In this document: one piece after another, positions 11,538-59,489 of the stretch
Layout: each line of letters begins with the position of its first letter
Numbering within the stretch: the first letter of the stretch is position 1
DNA from: a bacterium
GTDB taxonomy: Bacteria > Elusimicrobiota > Elusimicrobia > UBA1565 > UBA9628
Length of the DNA stretch: 64,000 nucleotides
Direction of reading: 5' to 3'
Assembly: GCA_021822495.1 (NCBI GenBank)
Contig: JAKAQO010000001.1
Span: 248,001-312,000 of the forward strand
The notes under the pieces: model-generated
The model's input: only the letters and a program-made list of their open reading frames with translations
What the model was told of the DNA's origin: nothing
Databases searched by the model: none
Translations under genes and position numbers: made by a program

Positions 11538-11605
11538 TAGGTCCTTTGCCAAGGCTTTTCTAGGACTTTAGGCCCAATCGCCCCATAAAAGTTTTAAGAT
11601 AGAAT
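11538..11605 (+). promoter_or_regulatory. Tandem TAGG-element promoter, copy 1
   Basis: Two related blocks, TAGGTCCTTTGCC at 11538 and TAGGACTTTAGGCCCA at 11561, start 23 bp apart. A -10 box TAGAAT (11600-11605) starts 39 bp after the second block. The TTG start at 11615 is 15 bp after the start of the -10, so the transcript has almost no leader. The same layout occurs at 15251, 17232, 42859 (minus) and 59423, always ahead of a signal-peptide protein. The second block covers the place of a -35 box, the position expected for an activator site. Confidence 0.75.
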
Positions 11606-11614
11606 AAACCCATC

Positions 11615-12097
11615 TTGAGGAAATTTAAATCTTTTATCGCTGGGAATCTGGCCGCGGTTCTGTTTTTTCAGGCCGCATTGGCCCAGGCCGCCCTGGAAAC
11701 CCTTAAAAGCGCGGAGACGCCTACTCTCCCCGCGATCTCCGTTCAACTCAATATTCCTAATGAAAAGGGGACAGTCCCCTTTAATTTAGAACAGTCTCTC
11801 ATTCTTTCCCCATTTCCCTCGGAAGTAATGAATCGAAAAAAGGGACTGTCCCCTTTTCACCTCGATGAGAAGCCTGTCGTTTACAAGCAAAGTCCGCAAG
11901 CACCCGCTTCAAGAAATTCATTGAACGCGGCTAAAGAATTATCCCTGAAACAAAATCAATCCATCAAAAAAGAAGGTTTTGAACGCTCCGCTTTTCGCTG
12001 GACAAAGTTTTGGTCCGGAGATAAACAAGAAGCGACCACGGACCCGAACGCTTCTTTTCAAAAGAGCTCCACCCGAAGAAAATTTTTATCACTCTAA
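11615..12097 (+). CDS. Exported protein N-terminal segment, possibly frameshifted from the MscS gene
   Basis: A 160-residue frame starting with TTG at 11615. It has a Sec signal peptide (MRKFKSFIAGNLAAVLFFQA followed by ALAQA) and then a low-complexity region. Near residue 40 it carries PAISVQLNIPN, a phrase echoed in the proteins at 42852 (APINVNISIP) and 59496 (PAISIESPVNLNF). Two GGGGAC palindromes are inserted in frame, coding KGTVPF and KGLSPF. The frame ends at 12097, while the next frame (+1) is already open from 11979 and continues into the MscS domains. This may therefore be the front half of one broken or frameshifted gene of about 583 residues. It matches no family I know. Confidence 0.6.
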   Translation: MRKFKSFIAGNLAAVLFFQAALAQAALETLKSAETPTLPAISVQLNIPNEKGTVPFNLEQSLILSPFPSEVMNRKKGLSPFHLDEKPVVYKQSPQAPASRNSLNAAKELSLKQNQSIKKEGFERSAFRWTKFWSGDKQEATTDPNASFQKSSTRRKFLSL

Positions 12098-13364
12098 AAA
12101 GGCAAAAACCGTCTCCCAAGCCGCGGCCCTCACCCTTTTGGTTCCCGCACCGGCCCTAGCCGCAAACCAAGCCCTTCATCCCGCTCACGCCTGGACCCAA
12201 ACTAAGCCGTATGTCATCGGCGCCGGGCTTTTATTTCTAATCTACGGAACCCATCGCGCAATCACCTGGTCTATCCAGAAACTCTCCACTTCGTTTCATT
12301 GGACTCCCAACACCACCGACACCGTGCGCTTTGTCGGTTCGGCCGCGAACTGGCTTTTGGGATTAGGGCTGATTCTTCATTTCGCGGGAGTCTCAACCTC
12401 GGTTCTTTTTGCCACCGGAGGCATCGCCCTGGGACTAGCCATCAACAAAACCCTCTCTAACCTTTTGCGCGCGACAATCTTTGTCATTAACCGCCCCTTC
12501 AATCTTGGCGAGAAAATCCGCATTGACGATAAAATTTATCAGGTGACCGATCTCAAACCTAAATATGTCCAATTGAAATTCATCCAAATAGCCCCCGACG
12601 CCCTAGAACAAGCCGATCCCGGGCCGGAAATCGTCTACTTTACTTATTCCCAGATCAGCAACAAAGCCGTGGAACTTTACAGATCCTATGATCCAGACGA
12701 CAAAATTTCGTTTAAGCCCTTTCTCAAACTGCTCATGGTTCCATTTTGGAAGGCGCTCAAAGAACTTCCTTATTCCTCAGACATCAAAGCCGCGTTTTGG
12801 GGTCTGGGCCTTTTTCTATTCGGAGAAGTCCTGCCCATCTTAAAAGCGCACAAGGGATATCATTTCATCGGCGCGGTTCTTCCCTACACTCAGAGCCTGT
12901 TCGCGCTTTTGGTTTCAAGCGCGATTTCCCGCTCATTGCAGGAATTCATTCCACTCGTCGGAAAATACGCCCATTGGGATGATGAAACCACCGCCCTTTT
13001 TCGCCTCGCCCTTCAACTCGCCGCTAACATCATCGGAATCAGTTTGGCGATTGGCGCCCTGGGGCTTCACATGACGAGCTTGGCCCTGGGCCTTGGAGTC
13101 GGCGCCGCGGCATTTACCCTGGCCTCGAACAATATCCTCGCCAACATCGCCCAAGCCGTTTCTCTGAGATGGCAAAGCCCGTTCAAAATCGGGGATACGA
13201 TTGAAATTGCCGGAAAAACGGGAGAAGTCCTCGAAGTGGGGCTTTTTTACGTCGTTCTTAAGACCGGGAAAAACCAACACACGCTAATTCCTTATTATTT
13301 GCTAGAATATTACGAGCTGATTATTCACCAAAGTCCGCGAGCTTCCGAAAATTCCGAAAGGTAA
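11979..13364 (+). CDS. Mechanosensitive ion channel (MscS-type) with two MscS-like modules
   Basis: A 461-residue frame with two MscS-like units. The first (about residues 115-200) has a Gly/Ala-rich pore-like helix SVLFATGGIALGLAINKTLS and a beta segment NRPFNLGEKIRIDD. The second (about 340-450) has SLALGLGVGAAAFTLASNN and SPFKIGDTIEIAGKTGEV, the better match to the MscS pore and beta domain. The formal start is a TTG at 11979 with AGAAGG only 2 bp before it. The first 35 residues lie out of frame over the upstream gene and look like non-protein, whereas the following KKAKTVSQAAALTLLVPAPA looks like a second exported segment. True translation may come from the upstream frame by a +1 shift near 12080. 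Confidence 0.75.
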   Translation: MNAPLFAGQSFGPEINKKRPRTRTLLFKRAPPEENFYHSKKAKTVSQAAALTLLVPAPALAANQALHPAHAWTQTKPYVIGAGLLFLIYGTHRAITWSIQKLSTSFHWTPNTTDTVRFVGSAANWLLGLGLILHFAGVSTSVLFATGGIALGLAINKTLSNLLRATIFVINRPFNLGEKIRIDDKIYQVTDLKPKYVQLKFIQIAPDALEQADPGPEIVYFTYSQISNKAVELYRSYDPDDKISFKPFLKLLMVPFWKALKELPYSSDIKAAFWGLGLFLFGEVLPILKAHKGYHFIGAVLPYTQSLFALLVSSAISRSLQEFIPLVGKYAHWDDETTALFRLALQLAANIIGISLAIGALGLHMTSLALGLGVGAAAFTLASNNILANIAQAVSLRWQSPFKIGDTIEIAGKTGEVLEVGLFYVVLKTGKNQHTLIPYYLLEYYELIIHQSPRASENSER

Positions 13365-13403
13365 ACGACTGAGTCCGCGTTCAACATCAATCAAAGGGAA
13401 TTC

Positions 13404-15239
13404 ATGACTATTCAACGCAGAGCCGATACGCGCAACATTGCCATCATCGCCCACGTCGATCACGGGAAAACAACCCTGGTCGACTCAATGCTTAAGGAAA
13501 CCGGGCTTTTCACCAAAAAGATGGACGAGCCGCAAGAGCAGGTGCTCGACTCAAACCCCTTGGAGCGCGAAAAAGGAATCACGATTTTAGCCAAAAACAC
13601 CTCGGTCGTCTACCAAGGGATCACGATCAATATCGTTGACACTCCTGGACACGCGGACTTTGGTAGCGAGGTCGAACGCGCCCTCAGCATGGTTGACGGC
13701 TGCATTCTGCTGGCTGACGCGGCCGAGGGTCCGATGCCGCAGACTAGATTTGTCTTAAGAAAAGCTCTTGCCTTGGGGCTTAAATGCGTCGTCGTCATCA
13801 ATAAGATGGACCGCCCGGACGGACGGCCCCAAGACACGGTCAACAAGGTTTTCGATCTCTTCGTCGAGATGGAAGCCTCTGAAGAACAACTTGATTTTCC
13901 CATCATCTACGCCTGCGGAAGGCAAGGCTGGGCCTCGACCGAGATCGATAAAACGGGAACAAATCTCGCGCCTCTTTTTGAAGCCGTCCTCAAGCATATT
14001 CCCGCTCCCGAAGCGGACGAGACCAAGACTCTTCAAATGCAAGTTACCATGCTCGATTATAGTTCTTACATCGGACGCATCGGAATCGGACGCATTCGCA
14101 ACGGGAAAATGGTGAAAAATCAATTGGTCGCGCTCGTTAAAAGCGATGGGAAAATCACGAACGGGAAGTTGACTCGCCTCGAAAAATATTTCGGGCTTGA
14201 ACGCCGCGAGGTCGAGAAAGCCTCGGCCGGGGATATCGTCGCCGTGGCCGGATTCGAGGATATCGACGTGGGAGACACGCTCTCATCCGCTGAATCTCCA
14301 GTCGCTCTCCCTTCCATCCATATCGATGAACCCACCATGGCCATGGAATTCATGGTCAACACCAGTCCTTTGGCGGGACGAGAAGGAAAATTTGTCACCA
14401 GTCGACATATTAAAGAACGGCTACTCAAGGAAGCCGAAACCAACGTCGGCCTCAAAATCGAGGCCTTGGGCGGGGAAGGTCGCTTTCTTGTTTCCGGTCG
14501 CGGGGAACTCCATCTCGCCGTCCTAATTGAGACCATGCGCCGAGAAGGTTATGAGCTCGCGGTTTCCCGCCCCGTCGTGATTGAAAAGCGGGAAGGCGGA
14601 GAAATTCTCGAACCTTACGAACGTTTGATCTTGGACGTCCCCAATCAATTTCAAGGCGCGATCATTGAAACGTTGGGAAAGCGCTCGGCTCAAATGACCC
14701 ATATGCAACCGGAAGGCAACTCCCGCCTGCGGCTTGAGTATATCATCTCCGCCCGAGCTTTGATGGGTCTTAAAAGCGAACTTTTAACCACGACCAAAGG
14801 TCTGGGGCTCATGCACCATTCCTTTGATGGTTACGCGCCCAAGGGCCCTGATCCGGCGCCGCGCCCCAACGGGGTTTTAATTGCCAAAGAAGCGGGCCTC
14901 GTCACCGCCTACGCCCTGGATCATCTCCAGGACCGCGGAGTGTTTTTTACGGCTCCCGGAGTTGAGGTTTACGCGGGCATGATTATCGGGACTAATTCCC
15001 GCTCTAACGATCTCGTCGTCAATCCCTGCAAGGCCAAGGCCTTGAGCAATATGCGGACCAAATCGACCGATGAAAAATCGCAGCTCGAACCTCCCAAAAT
15101 TTTGACCCTGGAGCAGGCTCTTGAGTTTATTGATTCAACCGAACTTCTCGAGGTCACGCCCCAAAGCCTTAGGCTCCGGAAAAAATCCCTCAGCGAAGCC
15201 GAGCGCCGCAGAAGCGGAAAAGAAGAAGCCGCGGCGTAA
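13404..15239 (+). CDS. typA: Ribosome-associated GTPase TypA/BipA
   Basis: A translational GTPase of the EF-G superfamily involved in ribosome assembly and stress growth. The 611-residue length is typical. G1 AHVDHGKTTL lies near residue 17, G3 DTPGHADFGSEVERAL near 75 and G4 NKMDRPDGRP near 130. The TypA-specific C-terminal domain contains RALMGLKSELLTTTKGLG and NMRTKSTDEK. The ATG at 13404 follows AAAGGGAATTC. It sits 39 bp after the MscS gene and has no obvious functional link to the exported proteins on either side. Confidence 0.97.
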   Translation: MTIQRRADTRNIAIIAHVDHGKTTLVDSMLKETGLFTKKMDEPQEQVLDSNPLEREKGITILAKNTSVVYQGITINIVDTPGHADFGSEVERALSMVDGCILLADAAEGPMPQTRFVLRKALALGLKCVVVINKMDRPDGRPQDTVNKVFDLFVEMEASEEQLDFPIIYACGRQGWASTEIDKTGTNLAPLFEAVLKHIPAPEADETKTLQMQVTMLDYSSYIGRIGIGRIRNGKMVKNQLVALVKSDGKITNGKLTRLEKYFGLERREVEKASAGDIVAVAGFEDIDVGDTLSSAESPVALPSIHIDEPTMAMEFMVNTSPLAGREGKFVTSRHIKERLLKEAETNVGLKIEALGGEGRFLVSGRGELHLAVLIETMRREGYELAVSRPVVIEKREGGEILEPYERLILDVPNQFQGAIIETLGKRSAQMTHMQPEGNSRLRLEYIISARALMGLKSELLTTTKGLGLMHHSFDGYAPKGPDPAPRPNGVLIAKEAGLVTAYALDHLQDRGVFFTAPGVEVYAGMIIGTNSRSNDLVVNPCKAKALSNMRTKSTDEKSQLEPPKILTLEQALEFIDSTELLEVTPQSLRLRKKSLSEAERRRSGKEEAAA

Positions 15240-15250
15240 AAGCGCGGAAT

Positions 15251-15318
15251 TAGGTCTTTTTCCGGACATCATTTAGGACTTTTGGCCCATGTCCTTGGAA
15301 AAAAAATCATGTTAGAAT
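15251..15318 (+). promoter_or_regulatory. Tandem TAGG-element promoter, copy 2
   Basis: TAGGTCTTTTTCCGG at 15251 and TAGGACTTTTGGCCCA at 15274 start 23 bp apart. The -10 box TAGAAT (15313-15318) starts 39 bp after the second block, and the ATG at 15327 follows 14 bp after the start of the -10. This geometry decides the start of the downstream gene: in-frame start codons at 15282 and 15309 lie before the predicted transcription start. The element begins 12 bp after the typA stop. Confidence 0.75.
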
Positions 15319-15326
15319 GCTTCAAG

Positions 15327-16175
15327 ATGAAGCAATCATTGCTCGCTTATATTTTGGCGGCGGGGTTATGTCTTTCTACGTCTCTCTCAAAAGCCGAAGA
15401 GAGTCGTGACTCCTTCGCCGGCTTTAACTTCGACCGAATGGAAAGCTCGCTCGTTTTTCCCAATTTCTCACAAGCCCTCAAATTTTCGCCTGCGCCCGTT
15501 CCCGTTGGGCTCGCGCGAACTTCTGAAATCGTTCCCCCGGGGCTCTGGAATACTCTTAAGGCTCCGGATGAGACTTCCCTTGAGATCATCGAGGCCAGTT
15601 TTCCTCAATGGGATATCTCCTCCATCCGCGAAGTTCCTTTTAAAGCGGCCGACGCGATGATCGCCAAGGGCGTTGAGCAAAAAATGAGCGCACTGGATTT
15701 TTTCACCAATTCCGCGTGGCAAGGCCCCCACTCCTATTATTTATCCCAAGAGACGTTGTCGAAGGTCATGGCCAAATATAATCTTCACACGCTCGTTCCC
15801 GCCGGCGGCCAAAGCGTCGATGGATTACCCTTCCACATGCAGATGGCGCTGTTGGGGAACGGCCAAATCGTGATGTTCATGGACCAGGACGGCTTTAATT
15901 TCACGAACTCCGACTACGCTTTCTTTCAATATAATGGACATCCGTTTACCTTCGGCGCGGACCGGGTCATCACTCAGAAAATCATGGGACCCGGCGATTT
16001 GAGGATATCCGGCCTGCGCGTAAACGTCACCGTCAACTCTTTCATTCACCCAAGCCTTCCAATCGTTGAGGCGAGAAAAATTTCCAAGACCAAGCAACAT
16101 GTTGAGACGAGTCTGGGCGGAGGCGACGCGCCGCTTTATCCGATGGCCTTGCGCGCGGCGAAGGAAAATCTATAA
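15327..16175 (+). CDS. Exported protein of unknown function
   Basis: A 282-residue protein with a clear Sec signal peptide (MKQSLLAYILAAGLCLSTSL then SKA) cleaved near residue 23. I chose the ATG at 15327 because the hydrophobic core follows it directly and the promoter geometry puts transcription start there. The mature part has about 75 residues rich in Pro and Ser, then a globular region. It includes SALDFFTNSAWQGPHSYYLS, an aromatic, Asn-rich stretch around 165-210, and ISGLRVNVTVNSFIHPSLP near 235. No catalytic motif or known family is recognised. It is likely periplasmic or surface-exposed and co-regulated with the other TAGG-element genes. Confidence 0.7.
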   Translation: MKQSLLAYILAAGLCLSTSLSKAEESRDSFAGFNFDRMESSLVFPNFSQALKFSPAPVPVGLARTSEIVPPGLWNTLKAPDETSLEIIEASFPQWDISSIREVPFKAADAMIAKGVEQKMSALDFFTNSAWQGPHSYYLSQETLSKVMAKYNLHTLVPAGGQSVDGLPFHMQMALLGNGQIVMFMDQDGFNFTNSDYAFFQYNGHPFTFGADRVITQKIMGPGDLRISGLRVNVTVNSFIHPSLPIVEARKISKTKQHVETSLGGGDAPLYPMALRAAKENL

Positions 16176-16186
16176 GCTCCCCGAGC

Positions 16187-16223
16187 TATGCTATGATAGA
16201 GAGAAGGTTTAGAGGAATATAAA
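16187..16223 (+). promoter_or_regulatory. Promoter -10 and ribosome site before the 16224 gene
   Basis: TATGAT at about 16191-16196 is a fair -10 box. AGAGGA lies 8-13 bp before the ATG at 16224 and serves as a ribosome binding site. Unlike the TAGG-element genes, this gene has an ordinary leader. Confidence 0.4.
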
Positions 16224-16616
16224 ATGAAAACGTTCAAAATTCAAATTTTCATTCTCGCCGTTATTGGCTTGACGTTTTTCGGCGCGGCCTTGCGGGCGGA
16301 AGACAGCATTGAATCTCAGTCCGCGAAATCCGGAAAAATGTTCAACTTAATCCTGGCTCGCGGCGGCCCCATTGGTGGTTTTCCCGGCGGCATGGGTCCC
16401 GGCGGCATTCAAAACCTTAAAAAGAAAAAAACCTCAAATAAAAAATCCAATATTTCGGACGATTACGGCGTTCATTGCGAAAGATCCGTGGATGTCATTA
16501 TGCCGGGATGCCGAGACAAAAAACATCGAAATCAAAAACCCGCCCCTCAACACGCGAGTCCTTCATCCCATGATGTCAAACCCGAAATCATTATCATCAA
16601 AGGCGGGAAAAAATGA
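16224..16616 (+). CDS. Small exported Gly/Lys-rich protein
   Basis: A 130-residue protein with a signal peptide (MKTFKIQIFILAVIGLTFFG followed by AALRA). The mature part has a glycine-rich patch (GGPIGGFPGGMGPGG near residues 47-61), then Lys-rich and His/Pro-rich tails. Two cysteines (CERSVDVIMPGC, near residues 85-96) could form a disulfide after export. It overlaps the following ankyrin gene by 4 bp (ATGA), so the two are co-translated. No family recognised. Confidence 0.65.
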   Translation: MKTFKIQIFILAVIGLTFFGAALRAEDSIESQSAKSGKMFNLILARGGPIGGFPGGMGPGGIQNLKKKKTSNKKSNISDDYGVHCERSVDVIMPGCRDKKHRNQKPAPQHASPSSHDVKPEIIIIKGGKK

Positions 16617-17191
16617 AAAAAATATCTTTACTTTTGGGAATCCTCGTTTTTGCGGCGGCTCAAGCGCCGCTCAAAGCCCAAGATTTTGAAGCGCGGTTGA
16701 ATGCGGGAACTGAGATGGTCTTAGGCTCTCCCGCTCTTAAAAAAATAAATTCCGACGCCAAAGCCTCAAACGCCGAAAGCGCCGATTATAAGGCCCTTAT
16801 GACGGCCGCCTGCGTTAAAAATGACGCGACCGGAGTCGCCAAGATTCTCAACGCCATGCCCAAGGGCGCTGTCAATCATATTTACAATAATCTCGCCGGA
16901 CATCACGGGGCCGGAGTTATTTGGTGCGCGGTGGGATTTCAAAATACGGTCATGGTCAAAGTGATGCTTGAACACGGAGCGAAACTCGACGGTAAAAGCG
17001 CGACCGGCTGGACCTTGGCCATGGAAGCGGCAGCGACGGGAAATGACGTCATCGTCGGCATGCTCCACGCTCACGGGGCTAATTTCTGCGCGAAAAACAA
17101 AGACGGCCAAACCGCGGCGGACATGGCCAAATCCTACGGATTCCCCAAAATCGCCCAAGAAATCAATTCCTGGACAATATCCTGCCGGTAA
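16613..17191 (+). CDS. Exported ankyrin-repeat protein
   Basis: A 192-residue protein with a Sec signal peptide (MKKISLLLGILVFAAAQAPL then KAQ). After a 30-residue linker it carries about three or four ankyrin repeats: ALMTAACVKNDATGVAKIL (near 60), GAGVIWCAVGFQNTVMVKVM (near 98), a clear repeat GWTLAMEAAATGNDVIVGML (near 130) and KDGQTAADMAKSYGFPKIAQ (near 165). Ankyrin repeats mediate protein binding. Exported ankyrin proteins are sometimes immunity or effector proteins, but nothing here shows a partner other than the coupled Gly-rich gene. A palindrome followed by a T run just after the stop probably ends transcription. Confidence 0.8.
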   Translation: MKKISLLLGILVFAAAQAPLKAQDFEARLNAGTEMVLGSPALKKINSDAKASNAESADYKALMTAACVKNDATGVAKILNAMPKGAVNHIYNNLAGHHGAGVIWCAVGFQNTVMVKVMLEHGAKLDGKSATGWTLAMEAAATGNDVIVGMLHAHGANFCAKNKDGQTAADMAKSYGFPKIAQEINSWTISCR

Positions 17192-17196
17192 AAGGT

Positions 17197-17220
17197 AAAA
17201 GGGGACTGTCCCCTTTTTTT
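17197..17220. terminator. GGGGAC palindrome with T run, probable terminator
   Basis: AAAAGGGGACTGTCCCCTTT followed by four more T bases forms a stem with a 3-base loop and an uninterrupted U tail, placed 5 bp after the ankyrin gene stop. It is one copy of a dispersed palindrome (also at 11763, 11836, 26404, 26449 and 36069). Here it fits a Rho-independent terminator on the plus strand and separates the upstream operon from the next TAGG promoter. Confidence 0.65.
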
Positions 17221-17231
17221 CTTTGTCTTTC

Positions 17232-17298
17232 TAGGCCTTTTTTCGCGTCCCATCTAGGTCTTTAGGCCCAGGTCTTGATTCCGGTTTCCTGTTAGTAT
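17232..17298 (+). promoter_or_regulatory. Tandem TAGG-element promoter, copy 3
   Basis: TAGGCCTTTTTTCGC at 17232 and TAGGTCTTTAGGCCCA at 17255 start 23 bp apart. The -10 box TAGTAT (17293-17298) starts 38 bp after the second block and 12 bp before the ATG at 17305. Transcription should start at the A of the ATG, giving a leaderless mRNA. Confidence 0.75.
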
Positions 17299-17304
17299 AT
17301 ATCA

Positions 17305-19974
17305 ATGATAAAAAATTATCGCCGACGTCAAAAAGCGGGATTCTTTATCGGGGCTTGCTTCCTGTTGACTCCCTGGGCCCACGCGCAAATCCTTTCTTTA
17401 AAGGATACACAGGCGATTAAAGCCTGTCAAATAACCCTAAAAACCTTTAAGACGCTTTCTTTCTCCCGGCAAAAAGAGATTTTATCCGGAAATTGCGATC
17501 ACCCAACGACGTTTTTGATGAGAAAAACCGCCAACAACAATCCCCCGCAAGAAAATGGTCTTGAGAAATCTTCCAACCATATTCACGACCTTCTGCAAAG
17601 AGCGAAGACAAGTTTTGGCGCTCATTCATCGGATGAAAACATCGCCGTTTCCGGCCTTTCGGGAAAAACAGAAAGACTCATTTCTCCGGTTGCGGTTCAA
17701 ACCCATTTTTCACAACTTTCCTCGGCCTCAACCCCTCTCAATCCAAACTCGCCCTCTTCACCCAACGCTCAACCTCCAGCGCAAAAGCCCGGTAAACCCG
17801 CAAAACCAGCCACAAAGCCTGCGGCTAAAAAACCCCGGTTTATTCCGATTCCCGGAAGCGATTGGGAAAAAGCGGCTAATGGGGACGTCAGCCCTGAAGA
17901 CGATCCCGGCTACGAAAGCGAAATTACTTTTAATGATCAGCTGATGAACCAAGATAATCAAGTCGGAGATACCAGCAAAGCCTGCCGCAAGCTCGATCTG
18001 CATGGAGCCGGAGCCTATTGGATAGGAGATTTGGGAATATCAGGCTCCATCCATCGCGCGATACTCGCTCTCCCTTACGCCAATGGACGCCTCGCGGTCT
18101 TGGATTCTTATACGCCGGCGCCTGAATATCATTACGGCTTTGTTCCCACCAGTATCAGCGGAGCGCCGCTCACCTTGACCTTGGGCATGAATACCAGTCT
18201 CAACACGACCGTCATTCGCCCGCTTCCGCTGAACCAGGCCAGCGCCTGCAACAGTCTCCTGCGCATCTTTAATCCGCTTGACGCTAAAACCGTTTTTCCT
18301 CTCAACGCTAAACGCATCGAGAAAATGGAAATCGGCGAAATCTGGAAGTTGCCGGTTCAAATTCAAATCGCGGCCGGCCCGGGCCTTACCCCGATTTTCG
18401 GCCCCGCCATCATCGGGCTTAACCTCCTCTACTCCCAAACGGGCGGCTATGGCCTCACCTTAAGACGCCTAGATAAAACCCATCTGCGGGTCCGGCTTAG
18501 ATTTAACCACGCCAAACTTTTGAGCGCTTCGGGACAAACCCTTTTCAGCATGGCCGGCCCCATGTTGTCGGTGATATTTTCGCAAGAAGTGCCCGTCGTG
18601 GGAGATTCTTTGGGCGGCAGAAACGTCGGGCAAGGGCTCAGCCAACTCTGGATTACGCAGCTCATCAATTACACGACCACCAAACTTGGAGTGTCCATCT
18701 CCTGGAGCGGAGAAAACCAGGCCTTGATTGAATTTATCCTCAACCCCGAAGATCACAAGCAAATGCTGGAGCTTCAAAAACTCGCGACCGGCGGCAGATT
18801 CGGAACTCTTTCAACGCTTATGAAAATGTATACGGACTCGGCGAAAAACTCATTTAAGCTGACGGAAAAATCCGTGATTAAAAACGCCCGTCAAAACAGC
18901 TTGCGCCTGAAAAGCCCGGTCAATTTCCTCGGAACCCAGGAATCGGTGGGCATCAGCCGCTCGGTTAATTTCACGATTCCGATTATCTTTAATTTTTCAG
19001 CCCAATCCTCTCATGATCATCAGCAAATGAAAATACTCGATCCCTCCGGAGGAGCTTTCAAGGTTAGCGGAACCTTCAAAGCCTTTGACGCCTCTCATGG
19101 AAATCAACATGGAGAATTACAACTCCCTTATTTCGGCTCTCTCTTTGAACAAGACTCCCAGGAAGGAGTTTCGACTTTCCTCTATTACGACAAGAAAGGA
19201 CGCGTGTCCTCGCCGGTCATTCTCTACACCCAAAACGCGGGACTGACCAGAAACAGCAAAGCCCCTTTGCGCTTAACCGAACTTGCCCGTTCTTTTTTCC
19301 CAAGCTATGGGGATAAGAAATTGGCTCTTCCCTTGGGCGGCCTCATTCCCAAAGGAGAGAAGGACGCCTACAAAGGCGGTTCCTCGGCCATGACCGTCGT
19401 TTTGGATCATAATGCGATCTCTGACATTAAGCGCGCATCCAAAGACCTCATCTTCAAATCCTATTTAAACGCCCAAAAAAATCGACGGGAGCTTTTATTA
19501 ATCGCCTCCAGAGCCGTAAAGAGGCATACCACTCCCGAAGCCCTCATTGACAGAGAAATTCGCGGTCTCTATCCTCCCGGAAAGCCAAGCCCTGAGAAAA
19601 CCCGCCTTATTTCGCATCTTCATGCCGAAAAAGATCAATTCGAGCAAATGAGAGATTTAGTCGCGGAATTGCCTTATTTGGGAAATCCTCACAAAAAACC
19701 GCATATCACTCCTGATGAAGAAACGCAAAATATCCGCAATTTCATAACGGGAAAAAGCAAAAATGGTTTGGCTTATGGAAATTTGATGAAAGTCATCGTG
19801 CGCCTCATTAAACCCAAGCACTTAGCCGTGGAATTTGTCTTAAGCGCCAAAAGAAAAGGCGGCAAAAGAGACCAGACGCGCCTCTATTTGAACCATAAAC
19901 TCGTGGAAAACCCTCTCATCAAGAGATGGAGTTTGGCCGCCTCCCGGTATCTTGTCCTTCAAACCACCGATTAA
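17305..19974 (+). CDS. Large exported protein of unknown function
   Basis: An 889-residue protein with a signal peptide (RRRQKAGFFIGACFLLTPWA then HAQ). Residues about 150-178 form a Pro/Lys/Ala-rich linker (PAQKPGKPAKPATKPAAKKP). The rest looks globular and rich in beta-type alternation, with SKACRKLDLHGAGAYWIGDL near 225 and a hydrophobic glycine-rich patch near 430. The C-terminal third contains charged helical stretches. Four scattered cysteines occur in the N-terminal 330 residues. I recognise no family and no catalytic motif; a cell-surface or outer-membrane-associated role is a guess from export, size and the linker. The leaderless start at 17305 is supported by the promoter spacing. 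Confidence 0.75.
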   Translation: MIKNYRRRQKAGFFIGACFLLTPWAHAQILSLKDTQAIKACQITLKTFKTLSFSRQKEILSGNCDHPTTFLMRKTANNNPPQENGLEKSSNHIHDLLQRAKTSFGAHSSDENIAVSGLSGKTERLISPVAVQTHFSQLSSASTPLNPNSPSSPNAQPPAQKPGKPAKPATKPAAKKPRFIPIPGSDWEKAANGDVSPEDDPGYESEITFNDQLMNQDNQVGDTSKACRKLDLHGAGAYWIGDLGISGSIHRAILALPYANGRLAVLDSYTPAPEYHYGFVPTSISGAPLTLTLGMNTSLNTTVIRPLPLNQASACNSLLRIFNPLDAKTVFPLNAKRIEKMEIGEIWKLPVQIQIAAGPGLTPIFGPAIIGLNLLYSQTGGYGLTLRRLDKTHLRVRLRFNHAKLLSASGQTLFSMAGPMLSVIFSQEVPVVGDSLGGRNVGQGLSQLWITQLINYTTTKLGVSISWSGENQALIEFILNPEDHKQMLELQKLATGGRFGTLSTLMKMYTDSAKNSFKLTEKSVIKNARQNSLRLKSPVNFLGTQESVGISRSVNFTIPIIFNFSAQSSHDHQQMKILDPSGGAFKVSGTFKAFDASHGNQHGELQLPYFGSLFEQDSQEGVSTFLYYDKKGRVSSPVILYTQNAGLTRNSKAPLRLTELARSFFPSYGDKKLALPLGGLIPKGEKDAYKGGSSAMTVVLDHNAISDIKRASKDLIFKSYLNAQKNRRELLLIASRAVKRHTTPEALIDREIRGLYPPGKPSPEKTRLISHLHAEKDQFEQMRDLVAELPYLGNPHKKPHITPDEETQNIRNFITGKSKNGLAYGNLMKVIVRLIKPKHLAVEFVLSAKRKGGKRDQTRLYLNHKLVENPLIKRWSLAASRYLVLQTTD

Positions 19975-20002
19975 AAATCGGACAAGCCAACGGCTGAGAT
20001 GT

Positions 20003-20008
20003 TATAAT
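20003..20008 (+). promoter_or_regulatory. -10 box for the aminotransferase gene
   Basis: TGTTATAAT contains a perfect TATAAT at 20003-20008. The predicted start near 20015 leaves a leader of about 50 bases ending in AAAGGAG before the ATG at 20065. This shows the genome also uses conventional leaders with ribosome sites. Confidence 0.6.
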
Positions 20009-20064
20009 GGAATTGGGGCGCAATGATTCCCAACCCGGAACCTTGGCCCTAAAGGAGATTTCTC

Positions 20065-21219: not shown

Positions 21220-21225
21220 CCAATA

Positions 21226-22323: not shown

Positions 22324-22335
22324 GGCCGCTTTAGT

Positions 22336-24639: not shown

Positions 24640-24641
24640 AG

Positions 24642-41670: not shown

Positions 41671-42852
41671 CTACAAAACTTCAAAAGTCCCGTCGGCTTT
41701 TTTGACGAAGACCTTATGATCCTGACGGGCGAAGACTTCAATCCGGTCTAACGCTAAAGGGTATTTTGCAATCGGAGATTTATCCCGGTAAGGAGAGTCA
41801 ATTTTATCCCCCACTGGAATGGATTGCCACCAATGAATCGCGTCTAATATTTCCTCAACGGGAACCGTCTCATGGTCGGTTAAATTAAGGACCGCTGTTC
41901 CCCACCCAAGGCCGTGGCGCTCAGCGTGCTTGTAAATCTGAGAATTGGCTTTGTTAAGAAACAAAGGAAATCCCTTGAGCGAATGAACCGTTTTCATCTC
42001 CGCCATGCGCCCGTCTAAAACCAAATCCGGAGTTGATTGTTCCCTCACCCCGCCCTCAATTAAAACCACCTGCAACTGATTTACGCCAGATTTCAGAAGA
42101 GATTCCAGCAGAACCCTTTCATGCGGCAACAAATCCGGCAGAATTTCAACCAGGGCTGGCGAATGGGATACATCCACCGTAATAATATCTCCGCCGTTCC
42201 CTCCAGGATAATGATAAACCTTAAGCGACTGGATCTTCCCATTCCCAAAAGCGACCGCCAACTGCTCGCGGAAATGTTCAAGGGCCGCGTTGGTGTTGGG
42301 AATAGCGCGGGCCACCTCTCCCGCGTTTTGAACATGAATAATAGTCGGAGGGCCGCGAGCCAGAAGAGAACGGTTTTTTCCATCGTTTCCACCGCTAAAG
42401 CCCGCCCCATCCCAGGCCGACGAAAATCCTTGAAGCGAACCGTTATTTAATAATTTTTTCGCGAAATATTTAAGCCGCAGGAGTGTTTTTGAATGGATTT
42501 GGGAATATTGGTTTTGTTGGCCGGATGAATAAGACCAAATCCTCGGAGCGGTAAAATTTTCAGCCGCAAGCGGCTTAAAATGATCCAGAAGCCCAACACT
42601 CTTAACCGGAGCGAGAATCGGATTTTTTTGCAAAAGAACGTCTTCGCTGGAAAGAATTTCCTGCCGAGGACTCAAGACCGCATCTTGTTCAAGAACCGCG
42701 CTGTTTAGATTTTGATCTTCATTATTAACGGAAGGAATCGAAATATTGACATTGATGGGGGCCAGCGTCTGGGGTTGAGAAGCATCCTCCGCGCGGTCAA
42801 GCGCATGAGAACTCAAGCTCACAAGTCTCAGTAAAAGAAGGAGCTTAATCAT
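41671..42852 (-). CDS. Exported protein with C-terminal PD-(D/E)XK-like nuclease motif
   Basis: A 393-residue protein with a short hydrophobic signal-like N-terminus (MIKLLLLLRLVSLSSHA). Next comes a low-complexity region with APINVNISIPSV near 31, similar to the N-terminal phrases of the 11615 and 59496 proteins. The C-terminal domain (about 185-345) contains VVLIEGGVREQSTPDLVLDG and then GRMAEMKTVHS: Asp276, Asp280, then Glu285-Met-Lys287. Asp followed by ExK after a beta hairpin is the core of PD-(D/E)XK nucleases and of several contact-dependent-inhibition toxins. No immunity gene is evident immediately downstream; the next feature is the fluoride riboswitch. Nuclease activity is inferred only. 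Confidence 0.65.
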   Translation of the reverse strand: MIKLLLLLRLVSLSSHALDRAEDASQPQTLAPINVNISIPSVNNEDQNLNSAVLEQDAVLSPRQEILSSEDVLLQKNPILAPVKSVGLLDHFKPLAAENFTAPRIWSYSSGQQNQYSQIHSKTLLRLKYFAKKLLNNGSLQGFSSAWDGAGFSGGNDGKNRSLLARGPPTIIHVQNAGEVARAIPNTNAALEHFREQLAVAFGNGKIQSLKVYHYPGGNGGDIITVDVSHSPALVEILPDLLPHERVLLESLLKSGVNQLQVVLIEGGVREQSTPDLVLDGRMAEMKTVHSLKGFPLFLNKANSQIYKHAERHGLGWGTAVLNLTDHETVPVEEILDAIHWWQSIPVGDKIDSPYRDKSPIAKYPLALDRIEVFARQDHKVFVKKADGTFEVL

Positions 42853-42858: not shown

Positions 42859-42926
42859 ATGATAGGACAAAAAGGCCCCTCGCGATAGGGCCAAAAGGCC
42901 TAGGGCGTTCTGGGCCTTTCGGCCCA
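42859..42926 (-). promoter_or_regulatory. Tandem TAGG-element promoter, copy 4 (three blocks)
   Basis: On the minus strand the blocks are TGGGCCGAAAGGCCCA (from 42926), TAGGCCTTTTGGCCCT (from 42902) and a weaker GGGGCCTTTTTGTCC (from about 42879), spaced 24 and 23 bp. The -10 box TATCAT (42864-42859) starts 38 bp after the TAGG block, and the ATG at 42852 is 12 bp farther. The first block is a perfect hairpin-forming palindrome. The spacing matches the four plus-strand copies. Confidence 0.75.
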
Positions 42927-48734: not shown

Positions 48735-48771
48735 AATGGACCGAATGAAACGTTTTTTTGATATTTTTTAA

Positions 48772-48800
48772 TTGCGTGAACCGCAGGGACATGTTATAAT
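48772..48800 (+). promoter_or_regulatory. Consensus promoter of the three-way-junction RNA
   Basis: TTGCGT (48772-48777), a 17-bp spacer and a perfect TATAAT (48795-48800). The predicted transcription start at 48807 is exactly the first base of the outer RNA stem. This coincidence strongly supports a designed RNA transcript. Confidence 0.8.
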
Positions 48801-48806
48801 ATAATT

Positions 48807-48884: not shown

Positions 48885-48891
48885 TCGCCGT

Positions 48892-49629: not shown

Positions 49630-49642
49630 ACGGATCGAAAAA

Positions 49643-54303: not shown

Positions 54304-54304
54304 C

Positions 54305-55192
54305 CTAAACCGCGACGGGCTTGAAATTTTTAGCGACGGTTGCGCCAATTTCGCTTAAATTCTCGATGACAATTGCGCCCGCGTTTTTCAAGGCCTCGAT
54401 TTTAGAGGCATGGGTGCCGGAAGAACCCTCCACAATGGCCCCGGCATGCCCCATTCGCCGTCCCGGAGGCGCGCTTTTTCCGGCAATGAAAATAAAGAGA
54501 GGCTTTTTCATATGAGCTTTGTAAAAAGCCGCCGCGTCTTCTTCGGCGGACCCGCCGATTTCCCCGATCATGACAATGGCTTCCGTTTTTGGATCACGCT
54601 CGAATAAATCTAAAATATCCACGAAATTCGACCCTGGGATCGGATCGCCTCCGATACCGACGACGGTTGATTGCCCCAATCCTTTTTGAGTGAGTTGGTG
54701 CACCGCTTCGTAAGTCAAGGTTCCCGAACGGGAGATAATTCCAATGGGCCCTTTTTTATGAATATAGCCCGGCATGATGCCCGCCTTGGATTCTTCCGGC
54801 GTAATGACCCCGGGACAATTAGGGCCGATAAGTCTCGCCTGAGGAGCGTAAATTTTTAAGAATTGTTTGGCTTTTGCCATATCTAAAACGGGAATTCCCT
54901 CAGTAATACAGATAATGAGGGAAATGCCGGCTTTTCCCGCCTCCATGACGGAATCAGCGGCGGCGGGCGCGGGAACAAAAATCAGAGAGACGTTCGCTCC
55001 GGTTTTTTTCACCGCTTCTTCAACCGTATTGAAAACCGGACGGTCCAAATGGGTCGTCCCGCCACGACCAGGAGTGACTCCGCCCACTATTTGAGAGCCG
55101 TATTCCAGACATTTTTGCGCGTGAAAAGAGCCCGCCGATCCGGTAAAACCTTGAACGATGATGCGCGAATCCTTATTTAATAAAATACTCAT
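54305..55192 (-). CDS. sucD: Succinyl-CoA synthetase alpha subunit
   Basis: Alpha subunit of succinate-CoA ligase, 295 residues. The phosphohistidine is His249 in [18 protein letters not shown]. The CoA-binding N-terminus has [14 protein letters not shown] and the middle [20 protein letters not shown]. With SucC it converts succinyl-CoA to succinate and makes ATP or GTP. It lies 67 bp after sucC with its own AGGAG. The arrangement korA-korB-sucC-sucD gives a complete path from 2-oxoglutarate to succinate with substrate-level phosphorylation. Confidence 0.97.
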
Positions 55193-55259
55193 TAGTCCTT
55201 CTCCTCACAAGATTTTAAGGACGGGACAATGCCCTCCTTGTATTTCATAGAAATGGGCA

Positions 55260-56426
55260 TTAGATTTTTCCTGCCGCGGCTTGGACGCTTTTCTGCGCGG
55301 CATCCCAGAGACTAGAGGCCGTCATTAAGCGAGTTCCCGAACGGTCCAAAATTTCCCGGCCCTTATCGGAATTAGTTCCCTCCAGACGAACCACCAAGGG
55401 AACTTTCAGCTTCATTTTTTTAAGCGCGGCCAAGATGCCTTCGGCGATCATATCGCAACGCACAATGCCGCCAAAGATATTGACCAGGATCGTTTTAACC
55501 TTCGGGTCCTTGAGAATAATTTTAAAAGCCCGCTCGACCCGCTCTTGATTGGCGGCGCCCCCCACGTCCAAGAAATTCGCCGGACTGCCCCCGGCCAAGG
55601 CGATGGTGTCCATCGTCCCCATGGCAAGCCCCGCGCCATTGACCATGCAACCGATATTCCCGTCCAAACCGACATAGGAAATATCATGTTTTTTGGCTTC
55701 TTTTTCCGCAGGAGAGGATTCAATGTCGTCTCTTGAGGCAAAATCCTCGTGACGAAACAAAGCGTTGTCGTCGGTCACGATTTTAGCGTCCAAAGCCACA
55801 AATCCCTTCGGAGTCAAAACCAACGGGTTGACCTCGAGTAAACTCATGTCTTTATTGATGAAAAGTTTGACCAAGGCCGTCGCCACTTTCGTAAAAGAGG
55901 AAATATACTCCGCTGGAATTCCCAATTCAAAAGCCAAGGCCCGCGCCGCGAAAGGCAAAAGCCCAAACACCGGATCAACGGGCTTTTTGATAATCGCTTC
56001 CGGATGGTCTTCGGCCAGGGTCTCAATTTCCATTCCGCCTTGAGAAGAAGCGATTAAAACGGGAGAACCGATTTTTCTGTCAATGGCAACAGAAAAATAA
56101 AATTCTTTTTCTATTTTAACGCCTTGTTCGATCAAAACCTGATCGACCTTGAGCGTTTGGCCATGGGTTTGATGCGTCGCCATTTTCATTCCCACCATCG
56201 CCTTGGCAAAAGCTCGGGCTTCTACCGGGGTTTTCGCGAGTTTAACGCCGCCGGCTTTCCCGCGGCCGCCGGCTAAAACCTGGGCCTTCAAAACCCACGG
56301 CCCCTTCTTAAGACGTTTGAGAATGGAATTAATTTGCGCCGGCTTATCAATGACGCCTCCAAACTCCGGGAGCGGAACCTGAACCTCTCTCAAAATATTT
56401 TTTCCTTCGTATTCCAATAATTTCAT
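55260..56426 (-). CDS. sucC: Succinyl-CoA synthetase beta subunit
   Basis: Beta subunit with an ATP-grasp domain, 388 residues. It has VLKAQVLAGGRGKAGGVKLA near 46, the metal-binding SLLEVNPLVLTPKG near 200 and NGAGLAMGTMDTIALAGGSP near 262, followed by TILVNIFGGIVRCD. Nucleotide preference cannot be read reliably. It begins 16 bp after korB in the same operon. Confidence 0.97.
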   Translation of the reverse strand: MKLLEYEGKNILREVQVPLPEFGGVIDKPAQINSILKRLKKGPWVLKAQVLAGGRGKAGGVKLAKTPVEARAFAKAMVGMKMATHQTHGQTLKVDQVLIEQGVKIEKEFYFSVAIDRKIGSPVLIASSQGGMEIETLAEDHPEAIIKKPVDPVFGLLPFAARALAFELGIPAEYISSFTKVATALVKLFINKDMSLLEVNPLVLTPKGFVALDAKIVTDDNALFRHEDFASRDDIESSPAEKEAKKHDISYVGLDGNIGCMVNGAGLAMGTMDTIALAGGSPANFLDVGGAANQERVERAFKIILKDPKVKTILVNIFGGIVRCDMIAEGILAALKKMKLKVPLVVRLEGTNSDKGREILDRSGTRLMTASSLWDAAQKSVQAAAGKI

Positions 56427-56442
56427 GGTTTCCTCTTTCTCT

Positions 56443-57480
56443 CTATGCCGCCACGGTCCACGTCTCGGACCCTTTAAGCAACTTTTCTAAATCTACGGAA
56501 GACGATTTTTTCGCCTCGGAAATTTGGCCCTCCATCATCTCATGAAGAACAGGCCGAGAAACATTGCGAAACACTCCTTGGGGAACCGGGAAATTCGGCC
56601 GTTCCATGTGAGACAACAGATAGGCCAAGGGAGCCGAGGTCTCATCATGGACCAAAATATCGGCGGGTATTTTGCCCGGCTCAAATTCGACCACCTCCAG
56701 ATTCCAATTCTTAAGCCGAATGCCTTTGTTTTTGTTTTTTCCAAACACCAAGGGCTTCCCGTGCTCTAAAACCAAATTCGTCTCGCTTTGAAGACTTTTA
56801 TCCGAGACTTCCGCCCACGCCCCGTCATTAAAGACGATGCAGTTCTGGAGAATCTCAATTAAGGCGGAACCCTTATGCTTGGCGGCCTTATCTAAAACCA
56901 AAGACAAGGCATTAAGATCCGTATCCACGGCCCGCGCCACAAACGTGGCTTCAGAGGCAAGGGCGACCGCAATCGGGTTCAGCGGATAATCAATCGAACC
57001 GTAAGGAGTTGATTTCGTCTTTTTCCCAATTTCAGAAGTCGGAGACAATTGCCCCTTGGTCAAGCCGTAAATGCGGTTGTTAAACAGGAGAATTTTAATA
57101 TCGGCGTTGCGTCTTAGGGCATGAATGAGATGGTTTCCCCCAATCGAAAGTCCGTCGCCATCGCCGGTGACGACCCAAACCATAAGGTCAGGCCGAGCGC
57201 ATTTAAGCCCGGTCGCCAAGGTTGGCGCGCGTCCGTGTATTGAATGAAATCCATAGGTGTTCATGTAATAAGGAAACCGGGACGAACACCCAATTCCCGA
57301 AACAAAGACGATTTTCTCGCGCGGAATGCCCAAGCTTGGCATGAGTTTTTGAACCGTGGCCAAAATAGCGAAGTCTCCGCAGCCGGGACACCAACGCACC
57401 ATCTGATCGGAAACAAAGTCCTTGCGGGATAAAACCGGTCCCGAAGCCGGAAGATTTTCAATTTCCTTTTCGTTTTCCAT
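56443..57480 (-). CDS. korB: 2-oxoacid:ferredoxin oxidoreductase beta subunit
   Basis: Thiamine-diphosphate and iron-sulfur subunit of a 2-oxoglutarate-type ferredoxin oxidoreductase, 345 residues. It has MVRWCPGCGDFAILATVQ near 28, GRAPTLATGLKCARPDLMVW then VVTGDGDGLSIGGNHLIHAL with the TPP motif GDGD, and NNRIYGLTKGQLSPTSEIGK. The next gene pair, sucCD, suggests 2-oxoglutarate as substrate, since its product succinyl-CoA feeds directly on. Electrons pass to ferredoxin, consistent with anaerobic metabolism. Confidence 0.95.
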   Translation of the reverse strand: MENEKEIENLPASGPVLSRKDFVSDQMVRWCPGCGDFAILATVQKLMPSLGIPREKIVFVSGIGCSSRFPYYMNTYGFHSIHGRAPTLATGLKCARPDLMVWVVTGDGDGLSIGGNHLIHALRRNADIKILLFNNRIYGLTKGQLSPTSEIGKKTKSTPYGSIDYPLNPIAVALASEATFVARAVDTDLNALSLVLDKAAKHKGSALIEILQNCIVFNDGAWAEVSDKSLQSETNLVLEHGKPLVFGKNKNKGIRLKNWNLEVVEFEPGKIPADILVHDETSAPLAYLLSHMERPNFPVPQGVFRNVSRPVLHEMMEGQISEAKKSSSVDLEKLLKGSETWTVAA

Positions 57481-59349
57481 TTATGATCCCCTTAAAACGC
57501 TCTCGACAAAGTTTTCGATTTCCGCGATTTTAAACGGTTGCCCTTTAACCTTATTCAACCCAATCGCCGGAATAGCGAATTTAGCGCGAATGACCTTGAG
57601 AAGTTGCCCCAAATTCATCTCCGCGACTACAATTTTTTCAAAACCCGCCAGCAAATCTCCCAAATCAGAGGGAAGCGGATTTAGATAGCGTAAATGAATC
57701 GCCGACACCGGTTCTTTTCTCGCCTGTAAATTCTTAACGGCCGCGGAAATAGCGCCGTAAGTGCTTCCCCATCCAATGACCAGAACTTTTCCCTTAGGGG
57801 AACCGAGAACCTGGGTCGGAGGAATTTCCTGGCTGATTTTATTTACCTTGGCCGCCCGCAAACGAACCATCTTCTCGTGGTTCTCCGGATCATAACTGAC
57901 ATTGCCGGTCACTTCTTGTTTTTCAATTCCCCCGATTCGATGCTCATAACCCGCAAGGCCTGGAGCGGCCCAAGGGCGAGCCAAGGTTTTCTCATCTCTG
58001 AGATAAGGTTTAAATTGGTCCTTGGCCGGAAGAGACGCCATCACGAATTTTTTGATATCGGAGACGCTCGGGATTTTCCACGGCTCGGAACCGTTGGCAA
58101 GATATCCATCCGTTAAAAGAAAGACGGGGGTCATATATTTAATGGCGATGCGACAAGCCTCTATGGTCGCGTCAAAACAGTCCGAGGGGGTTGAAGCCGC
58201 AATGACCGGGACCGGGCTTTCGCCGTTTCGGCCGTAAAGGCACTGCAAAAGATCCGCCTGTTCGGTCTTGGTTGGAAGGCCGGTCGAGGGACCGCCGCGC
58301 TGAACGTCTAAAATCACAACCGGAAGTTCCGTCATGACCGCCAGCCCAATCGCCTCGGATTTAAGAGCGACTCCCGGGCCGCTGGTTCCCGTCACCGCCA
58401 AGCGCCCACCGAAGGACGCGCCAATGGCGGAGCCGATAGCGGCAATCTCATCTTCCGCCTGAAAGGTTTTAACTCCAAAAGCCTTGTGCTTGGAAAGTTC
58501 ATGTAGAACGTCGGAAGCCGGGGTAATCGGATAAGAACCGTACCACAATTCCAATCCCGAAGCCTGGGATGCCGCGATAAAACCCAAGGCCGTCGCCTCA
58601 TTTCCAGTAATGTTGCGATAAAGCCCCGGAGCCAAGGACGCTTTTCTCACTCGGTAGTGGAACCCAAATATCTCGGCTGTCTCGGCATAGGAGTTTCCAG
58701 CGAGAAGGGCTTTTTTATTCGCTTCCACTAATAAAGGAACCTTTTTAAATTTAGATTCAATCCACTTTAGCGTCCCTTCCATCGGGCGATCGTAAAGCCA
58801 ATACATCATTCCCAGGGCAAAAAAGTTTTTGCAGCGCTCCACCTGAACCTTGGTTAAGGCCAGACCGCTTAAGGCGTTTCCGGTCATCCTGGATAAGTCA
58901 ACCTTAATTACGCGAAAATCCGATAAGGAACCGTCTTCAAGAGGGTTTTTCTCGTAGCTAACCTTCGTTAAATTCTGCGCGGTAAAGGAATCCACGTTCG
59001 CAATCAAAATTCCGCCCTTTTTCAGATCTTTGACGTTCGCTTTCAAAGCGGCCGGGTTCATCGCCACCAAAACGTCGGGGGCATCCCCGGGGGTCAACAC
59101 TTCTCTGGAACTAAAATGAATCTGATATCCCGAAACGCCCGGGAGCGTTCCAACAGGAGCGCGAATTTCCGCGGGATAATCCGGCAAGGTCGATAAATCG
59201 TTTCCCGCGAGAGCGGTTGAGGTCGTAAATTGCATACCCGTCAATTGAATTCCATCCCCTGAATCGCCCGCAAAGCGAATCGTCACCGATTCGAGTTCCT
59301 CCACGGGGCTGGTCTGGGTTTGGGGCGCGTCTTTAGATTGAATGGTCAT
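57481..59349 (-). CDS. korA: 2-oxoacid:ferredoxin oxidoreductase alpha subunit (gamma-alpha fusion)
   Basis: First gene of the kor-suc operon, 622 residues. The N-terminal 190 residues are the gamma domain (TIRFAGDSGDGIQLTGMQF, then APVGTLPGVSGYQIHFSSRE), fused to the alpha (pyrimidine-binding) domain. The latter contains GNEATALGFIAASQASGLEL, YGSYPITPASDVLHELSKH and VLDVQRGGPSTGLPTKTEQA. The gamma-alpha fusion is the common two-subunit form. The YPITP motif is typical. The gene abuts korB. Confidence 0.95.
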   Translation of the reverse strand: MTIQSKDAPQTQTSPVEELESVTIRFAGDSGDGIQLTGMQFTTSTALAGNDLSTLPDYPAEIRAPVGTLPGVSGYQIHFSSREVLTPGDAPDVLVAMNPAALKANVKDLKKGGILIANVDSFTAQNLTKVSYEKNPLEDGSLSDFRVIKVDLSRMTGNALSGLALTKVQVERCKNFFALGMMYWLYDRPMEGTLKWIESKFKKVPLLVEANKKALLAGNSYAETAEIFGFHYRVRKASLAPGLYRNITGNEATALGFIAASQASGLELWYGSYPITPASDVLHELSKHKAFGVKTFQAEDEIAAIGSAIGASFGGRLAVTGTSGPGVALKSEAIGLAVMTELPVVILDVQRGGPSTGLPTKTEQADLLQCLYGRNGESPVPVIAASTPSDCFDATIEACRIAIKYMTPVFLLTDGYLANGSEPWKIPSVSDIKKFVMASLPAKDQFKPYLRDEKTLARPWAAPGLAGYEHRIGGIEKQEVTGNVSYDPENHEKMVRLRAAKVNKISQEIPPTQVLGSPKGKVLVIGWGSTYGAISAAVKNLQARKEPVSAIHLRYLNPLPSDLGDLLAGFEKIVVAEMNLGQLLKVIRAKFAIPAIGLNKVKGQPFKIAEIENFVESVLRGS

Positions 59350-59422
59350 TGAAATTCACCTATCTTTATAAATGTCAGTCTTTATCCATACTATAACTCT
59401 TTTTCCCGCCACTTTGAAATAT

Positions 59423-59489
59423 TAGGTCCTTTGCCGGAGTCCGTCTGGGCCTTTAGGCCCATACACAAAGGCCCCGGGAATGTTACAAC
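59423..59489 (+). promoter_or_regulatory. Tandem TAGG-element promoter, copy 5
   Basis: TAGGTCCTTTGCCGGA at 59423 and TGGGCCTTTAGGCCCA at 59446 start 23 bp apart; the second is a perfect palindromic hairpin. The -10-like TACAAC (59484-59489, in TGTTACAAC) starts 38 bp after the second block and 12 bp before the ATG at 59496. The -10 is the weakest of the five, which would make an activator more necessary. The region is divergent with korA. Confidence 0.75.

What the first reader, a model, noticed from the sequence alone, without database searches (positions are those of the whole stretch)
11538..59489. An apparent regulon of exported proteins under a tandem TAGGNCYTTNGGCCCA promoter element
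Five promoters (11538, 15251, 17232, 42859 on minus, 59423) carry two or three copies of a 16-bp block starting 23-24 bp apart. A -10 box lies 38, 39 or 38 bp after the TAGG of the proximal block (second of three in the minus-strand copy), and the start codon 12-15 bp after that -10. Every gene downstream has a Sec signal peptide or signal-like N-terminus and no family I recognise except the MscS channel reached from 11615. The blocks cover the -35 region and no good -35 is seen, the geometry of an activator-dependent promoter. I know no described regulator with this site.
Basis: partly seen in the sequence, partly recalled or inferred. Interest (0 to 1): 0.88.

Follow-up and report, generated by a model that had tools for sequence, protein, structure and literature searches.

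The report
Class-wide promoter switch for exported proteins
The repeated DNA block is a real regulatory site that sits at an exact distance before the start of dozens of genes for exported proteins throughout one class of Elusimicrobiota bacteria, and it looks like the docking site of a DosR-like response regulator that these bacteria share.

Summary
Confirmed and extended. The five tandem-block promoters exist at the stated places. In the window's genome and its genus the blocks recur tens of times, outside genes, with rigid geometry: partner block 23 bp upstream (80 of 85 direct pairs) or inverted at 25 bp (19 of 24), a TATAAT-like box at +38, and an ATG exactly at +50 in a third of sites. 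That puts block centres at -42.5 and -65.5 and makes those mRNAs leaderless. An exact block-plus-(-10) pattern hits 57 of 149 phylum genomes and never its reversed control. Downstream genes are mostly exported (70 of 80 against 111 of 352 background; 14 of 15 in a gut relative). One promoter is conserved across six genera while its spacers diverged. The claim that no described regulator fits is not supported: the block has no conflict with the stringent mycobacterial DosR consensus, and the class carries a conserved NarL/FixJ response regulator whose recognition helix keeps DosR's KTVKN. All 57 element-bearing genomes have a homologue and all 81 genomes without one lack the element, though this is confounded by phylogeny. 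Binding, phosphorylation, start sites and signal are untested. Side finding: regulon proteins often share a signal-peptide leader with an FDG motif, fused to unrelated domains.

The parts
11538..11553 (+). distal block of promoter 1 (TAGGTCCTTTGCCAAG)
11561..11576 (+). proximal block of promoter 1 (TAGGACTTTAGGCCCA)
11600..11605 (+). -10-like box TAGAAT of promoter 1
11615..13364 (+). gene 1: signal peptide plus MscS-type channel; split over ORFs 11615-12097 and 11979-13364 (frame change near 12057-12085 relative to an intact relative)
15251..15266 (+). distal block of promoter 2
15274..15289 (+). proximal block of promoter 2 (TAGGACTTTTGGCCCA)
15313..15318 (+). -10-like box TAGAAT of promoter 2
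15327..16175 (+). gene 2: 282-aa protein with signal peptide, no Pfam family
17232..17247 (+). distal block of promoter 3
17255..17270 (+). proximal block of promoter 3 (TAGGTCTTTAGGCCCA)
17293..17298 (+). -10-like box TAGTAT of promoter 3
17305..19974 (+). gene 3: 889-aa exported protein, ATG at +50 (predicted leaderless); element also upstream of its homologues in three relatives
42911..42926 (-). inverted distal block of promoter 4
42887..42902 (-). proximal block of promoter 4 (TAGGCCTTTTGGCCCT on the minus strand)
42859..42864 (-). -10-like box TATCAT of promoter 4
41671..42852 (-). gene 4: 393-aa protein with signal-like N-terminus, ATG at +50 (predicted leaderless)
59423..59438 (+). distal block of promoter 5 (TAGGTCCTTTGCCGGA)
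59446..59461 (+). proximal block of promoter 5 (TGGGCCTTTAGGCCCA)
59484..59489 (+). -10-like box TACAAC of promoter 5
59496..61127 (+). gene 5: 543-aa exported protein, ATG at +50 (predicted leaderless); leader (residues 1-167) modelled at very low confidence with an FDG motif, then a folded domain of about 375 aa

Best explanation
Each 16-bp pseudo-palindrome (TRGGNCYTTNGRCCCW) is the operator of a dimer of a NarL/FixJ-family response regulator, RR1 (outside the window, at G000:C4:82821-83561). Two dimers bind at centres -42.5 and -65.5, or to an inverted partner block 25 bp away, sometimes shared by divergent promoters. They recruit sigma-70-type RNA polymerase to promoters with a poor -35 and a -10 box 38 bp downstream of the block start. 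Transcription starts at +50, which in about a third of promoters is the A of the start codon (leaderless mRNA). The regulon is mostly exported and envelope proteins and is conserved across class Elusimicrobia. Shown: the element, its geometry, conservation, the enrichment and the co-occurrence with RR1. Inferred: that RR1 is the binder, that it activates, that phosphorylation switches it, and where transcription starts.
For: Rigid geometry over 109 paired sites: direct spacing 23 bp in 80 of 85, inverted 25 bp in 19 of 24, TATAAT-like hexamer at +38 in 72 of 109, ATG at +50 in 34 of 109 (tests). Exact block+(-10) pattern in 57 of 149 phylum genomes, reversed control zero in every genome. Composite promoter conserved upstream of the same OMP-like gene in six genera: blocks 77-80% identical, -10 78%, spacers about 30%. 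Exported-gene enrichment. DosR-like consensus with no conflict (PMC6448022, PMC2275270). RR1 is NarL family, PDB matches VraR (1.6e-39) and DevR/DosR (6e-33), KTVKN shared with DosR in the alignment, and K-T-[VI]-K-N conserved in the RR1/RR2 homologues read. 57 of 68 genomes with an RR1 homologue have the element, 0 of 81 without. G003, 97% complete, has RR1 as its only GerE protein and 33 sites. DevR target promoters likewise use paired primary and secondary boxes, the proximal one overlapping the -35, and shared divergent promoters (PMC3029386).
Against: No binding, expression or 5'-end data. RR1 and the element are both largely confined to one class, so co-occurrence is confounded by descent; only four same-class genomes with no RR1 match (plus one with a 38% match) were informative. 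RR1's own promoter has no element in the window's genus. KTVKN is not unique: Listeria DegU uses the equivalent K-K-N residues (PMC9263151). No HisKA_3 kinase was found in G000, so the usual partner kinase type is missing. Other transcription factor families were not screened. About nine genomes with a good RR1 orthologue have no exact site.
Confidence: 0.66

Rival explanations
1. The element is an activator-dependent promoter of exported-protein genes, but the binder is a different, unidentified transcription factor of class Elusimicrobia (or the RR1 paralogue RR2), not RR1.
For: The geometry and enrichment do not depend on who binds. Co-occurrence with RR1 is confounded by phylogeny. Other HTH families were not screened.
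Against: DosR-like site logic plus a DosR-like recognition helix in a regulator that tracks the element. RR2 was not found in G003, which has 33 sites.
Confidence: 0.22
2. The blocks are part of the recognition sequence of an alternative sigma factor rather than an activator site.
For: Fixed distance to the -10 box and absence of a consensus -35.
Against: The -10 is TATAAT-like. The block ends 22 bp before the -10, too far for an ordinary -35 contact. The second block is equally conserved and can be inverted with a different spacing, which a sigma factor would not need.
Confidence: 0.03
3. The blocks are a dispersed mobile repeat (REP/MITE-like), or hairpin or terminator debris between genes, without regulatory function.
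For: Many near-identical intergenic copies; the block is pseudo-palindromic.
Against: Flanks and the inter-block spacer are not conserved, only blocks and -10. Rigid spacing to the -10 and start codon. Same promoter kept at orthologues in six genera. It lies upstream of the predicted start, so it would not be transcribed from this promoter.
Confidence: 0.02
4. The blocks are repressor operators (of RR1 or another factor) rather than activator sites.
For: Position alone cannot exclude repression; the proximal block abuts the -35 region.
Against: Centres at -42.5 and -65.5 upstream of a promoter lacking a good -35 fit class II activation, as in DevR target promoters (PMC3029386).
Confidence: 0.07

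Closest known systems
DosR/DevR regulon of Mycobacterium tuberculosis (NarL/FixJ response regulator; DosR boxes)
   Same: Palindromic GGGAC-TTNNG-NCCC-type operator; two or more boxes per promoter with the proximal one over the -35; shared divergent promoters; a regulon of about 50 genes; NarL-family regulator with KTVKN recognition helix.
   Different: Different phylum; box degenerate at the first G and the A (TRGGNC); distal block has its own sequence; targets are exported proteins rather than a dormancy set; no HisKA_3 (DosS/DosT-type) kinase found in G000; no evidence of hypoxia signalling.
VraR/LiaR cell-envelope-stress response regulators
   Same: Best PDB sequence match of RR1 is VraR; envelope-directed regulon.
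   Different: VraR has KTVKTH in the recognition helix where RR1 has KTVKNH; the operator resembles DosR's; no LiaF/LiaS-like neighbour was seen beside RR1 (not searched genome-wide).
DegU (NarL family)
   Same: Recognition helix K-K-N residues equivalent to RR1's (PMC9263151); secretion-related regulons are known for the family (own knowledge).
   Different: Operators of DegU are AT-rich (own knowledge), unlike TRGGNC...GRCCC.

Membership tests
NarL/FixJ response regulators (for RR1) | receiver domain with acidic pair, phospho-acceptor Asp and Lys | tested here: met
   DD in VRVIIADDQ, D in VILLDIKLP, K in GYLSK, aligned to VraR, DevR and NarL
NarL/FixJ response regulators (for RR1) | C-terminal GerE (PF00196) helix-turn-helix | tested here: met
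   70.4 bits, cut-off 23.5
DosR-type regulon | operator matches the DosR consensus | tested here: met
   0 conflicts with GGGACTTNNGNCCCT; shuffled consensuses with at most 1 conflict 0.6%
DosR-type regulon | multiple closely packed boxes, proximal one overlapping the -35 | tested here: met
   geometry; DevR described in PMC3029386
DosR-type regulon | DNA contacts by Lys-Lys-Asn of the recognition helix | tested here: inconclusive
   KT[VI]KN present in the RR1/RR2 homologues, but shared with DegU
DosR-type regulon | HisKA_3 sensor kinase partner (DosS/DosT type) | tested here: not met
   no PF07730 match in G000
DosR-type regulon | regulator binds the boxes and activates after phosphorylation | not testable with these tools
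   needs EMSA/footprinting and a mutant
DosR-type regulon | autoregulation of the regulator gene | tested here: not met
   no block upstream of RR1 in the g1 genomes; a block near RR1 in only three other-genus loci
Leaderless promoters | transcription start coincides with the start codon | tested here: inconclusive
   -10 to ATG distance fits in 34-37 of 109 sites; starts not mapped

The most novel reading that the evidence does not exclude
Class Elusimicrobia run much of an exported proteome through one DosR-like response regulator without a HisKA_3 kinase, using leaderless mRNAs, and part of that proteome carries a previously undescribed exported leader (signal peptide, low-confidence presumably disordered stretch, basic helix, [FLI]FDG motif) joined to unrelated domains, acting as a sorting, anchoring or processing tag.
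Probability: 0.25. Interest if true: 0.82.

Novelty: new variant of a known kind. Interest (0 to 1): 0.66.

Why it matters
It would be a transcriptional circuit reconstructed for most of a bacterial class with very few cultivated members, linking a conserved regulator to a defined exported-protein set. It predicts transcription start sites to the base, predicts leaderless translation in this class, and gives many uncharacterised exported proteins a shared regulatory context. If G071 is the cultivated Elusimicrobium minutum, it can be tested directly. It also suggests that DosR-type operator logic lies far outside Actinobacteria with a different target set.

Tried and rejected
RR1 autoregulation: no block in the window's genus. 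HisKA_3 partner kinase: none in G000. RR2 as necessary regulator: not found in G003, which has one of the largest site sets. RNA hairpin or terminator reading: the block lies upstream of the -10. Sigma-factor reading: rejected on geometry. Mobile-repeat reading: rejected on flank divergence and orthologous conservation. Literature on Elusimicrobia promoter motifs or such a regulon: nothing found in the library; two literature searches failed on their terms. Fold search of the 543-aa protein: no match at E<=1e-3; weak nuclease-like hits and an ExD...ExK pattern suggest a PD-(D/E)XK-like core, not established. The 889-aa protein gives only a moderate-confidence strand-rich model, not searched further.

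Full report
WHAT WAS CHECKED. The proximal blocks match TAGGNCYTTNGGCCCA with 0 or 1 mismatch. The upstream blocks follow a related but distinct consensus, TAGGTCYTTTGCCGGA. At the minus-strand promoter the partner is an inverted block. The window lies in a 2.2-Mb genome (G000, contig C4). Relatives of a window protein fetched by name include Elusimicrobia MAGs.

MORE THAN CHANCE. In G000 the single block (up to 2 mismatches) occurs 97 times against 55 for the reversed pattern. The two-block pattern occurs 22 times against 0. The exact block plus -10 pattern occurs 26 times against 0. In the stretches fetched around hits, only 1 of 25 exact block+(-10) sites falls inside an ORF of 100 aa or more, although such ORFs cover 94% of a 464-kb sample made of twenty 20-kb stretches picked by hand plus the window.

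GEOMETRY. Among 139 non-redundant sites in the fetched stretches of G000-G004 and family relatives, 109 have a partner block. These are not independent, since some are orthologous and all were fetched because they match. Direct pairs are 23 bp apart in 80 of 85; inverted pairs 25 bp apart in 19 of 24. A hexamer with at least 4 of 6 matches to TATAAT sits at +38 in 72 of 109; every other offset from 20 to 59 gives at most 26. An ATG starts exactly at +50 in 34 sites (37 with GTG); every other offset from 40 to 69 gives at most 11 (tests). With the -10 at +38 to +43, +50 is where transcription should start, so those mRNAs are predicted to be leaderless and the block centres lie at -42.5 and -65.5. 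Sites with later start codons have leaders, some with Shine-Dalgarno-like stretches. Some pairs are back to back; in L025 start codons lie at +50 on one strand and +51 on the other.

CONSERVATION. Homologues of the 889-aa protein in three other assemblies carry the element upstream. The promoter of an OMP-like gene is recognisable in six genera: blocks 77-80% identical, -10 region 78%, spacers about 30%. A sequence-only model of the composite promoter finds 33 sites at E<=1e-3 in G000 and in G003, 10 in G020, and up to 10 in small-genome relatives of family f7. Sites of the window's genus and of a few relatives trained the model; no f7 sequence did. In G071, a single 1,643,562-bp contig which I believe from memory to be Elusimicrobium minutum Pei191, 14 of 15 exact sites precede genes with a signal-like N-terminus.

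WHAT IS DOWNSTREAM. By a simple hydrophobicity rule, 70 of 80 regulated ORFs have a signal-like N-terminus against 111 of 352 background ORFs (Fisher p about 1e-20; the rule is permissive and related genes are counted separately). Recognised domains include MscS, M1 aminopeptidase, GH15, AAA, lysine-decarboxylase/LOG family, Rce1-like protease, subtilase and PLD. A few targets are not exported: a receiver-domain protein (also under the element in G035, a different family), a PAS-GGDEF-like protein, and a protein with an SEC-C-like end (the last two named from sequence by eye).

WHO BINDS. The block has no conflict with the stringent DosR consensus GGGACTTNNGNCCCT (PMC6448022) over 11 comparable positions; shuffled versions reach at most one conflict in 0.6%. 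The DosR motif is palindromic and DevR promoters carry paired boxes with the proximal one over the -35 (PMC2275270, PMC3029386). G000 has two GerE-domain response regulators. RR1 (247 aa, C4:82821-83561) is closest in the PDB to VraR and DevR/DosR; K-T-V/I-K-N of the recognition helix is kept in the RR1/RR2 homologues read. A homologue at E<=1e-40 occurs in 68 of 149 phylum genomes. All 57 genomes with the exact pattern are among them, and none of the 81 without a homologue has the pattern (test). Two of the 68 are only 37-38% identical and have no sites. G003 has only RR1 and still 33 sites. These facts make RR1 the leading candidate but do not prove it: the co-distribution follows phylogeny, other regulator families were not screened, KTVKN occurs in DegU too, and the usual HisKA_3 kinase is absent from G000.

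MECHANISM. Most likely, phosphorylated RR1 dimers bind the proximal and distal blocks cooperatively and act as a class II activator on promoters with a weak -35. Shown: sequence, geometry, conservation, enrichment, co-occurrence. Inferred: binder, activation, phosphorylation, start site. The signal is unknown.

LIMITS. No expression data. G000 is 94.7% complete. Gene calls are ORF-based. The background sample was chosen by hand without reference to the hits but not by a random generator.

Noticed in passing
59496-61127 in the window; L010-L048, L093-L132: Many regulon proteins share an exported leader of about 130-180 aa (signal peptide, low-complexity stretch, basic helix, then [FLI]FD[GHRN]) before unrelated C-terminal domains: 28 of 80 regulated ORFs have the motif in the first 240 residues against 5 of 352 background ORFs. 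In the model of the 543-aa protein residues 1-167 have very low confidence, with one predicted helix at 105-125.
   Followed up: partly
11615-13364: The MscS-type gene is split over two overlapping frames near 12057-12085 relative to an intact 592-aa relative (L095): frameshift mutation or assembly error.
   Followed up: partly
59496-61127: The folded domain of this exported protein family has invariant ExD...ExK residues and weak nuclease-like fold hits; possibly a secreted PD-(D/E)XK-type protein.
   Followed up: partly
L028:3104-3628 and L152: A stand-alone receiver-domain protein lies under the element in both G000 and G035 (different families), suggesting a conserved regulatory member of the regulon.
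   Followed up: no
L154, L161, L166: Blocks (0-2 mismatches) lie near the RR1 gene in three other-genus loci, with at least one block on the opposite strand in each; function unclear.
   Followed up: no
G000 genome: No HisKA_3 (PF07730) kinase although two NarL-type response regulators are present.
   Followed up: no
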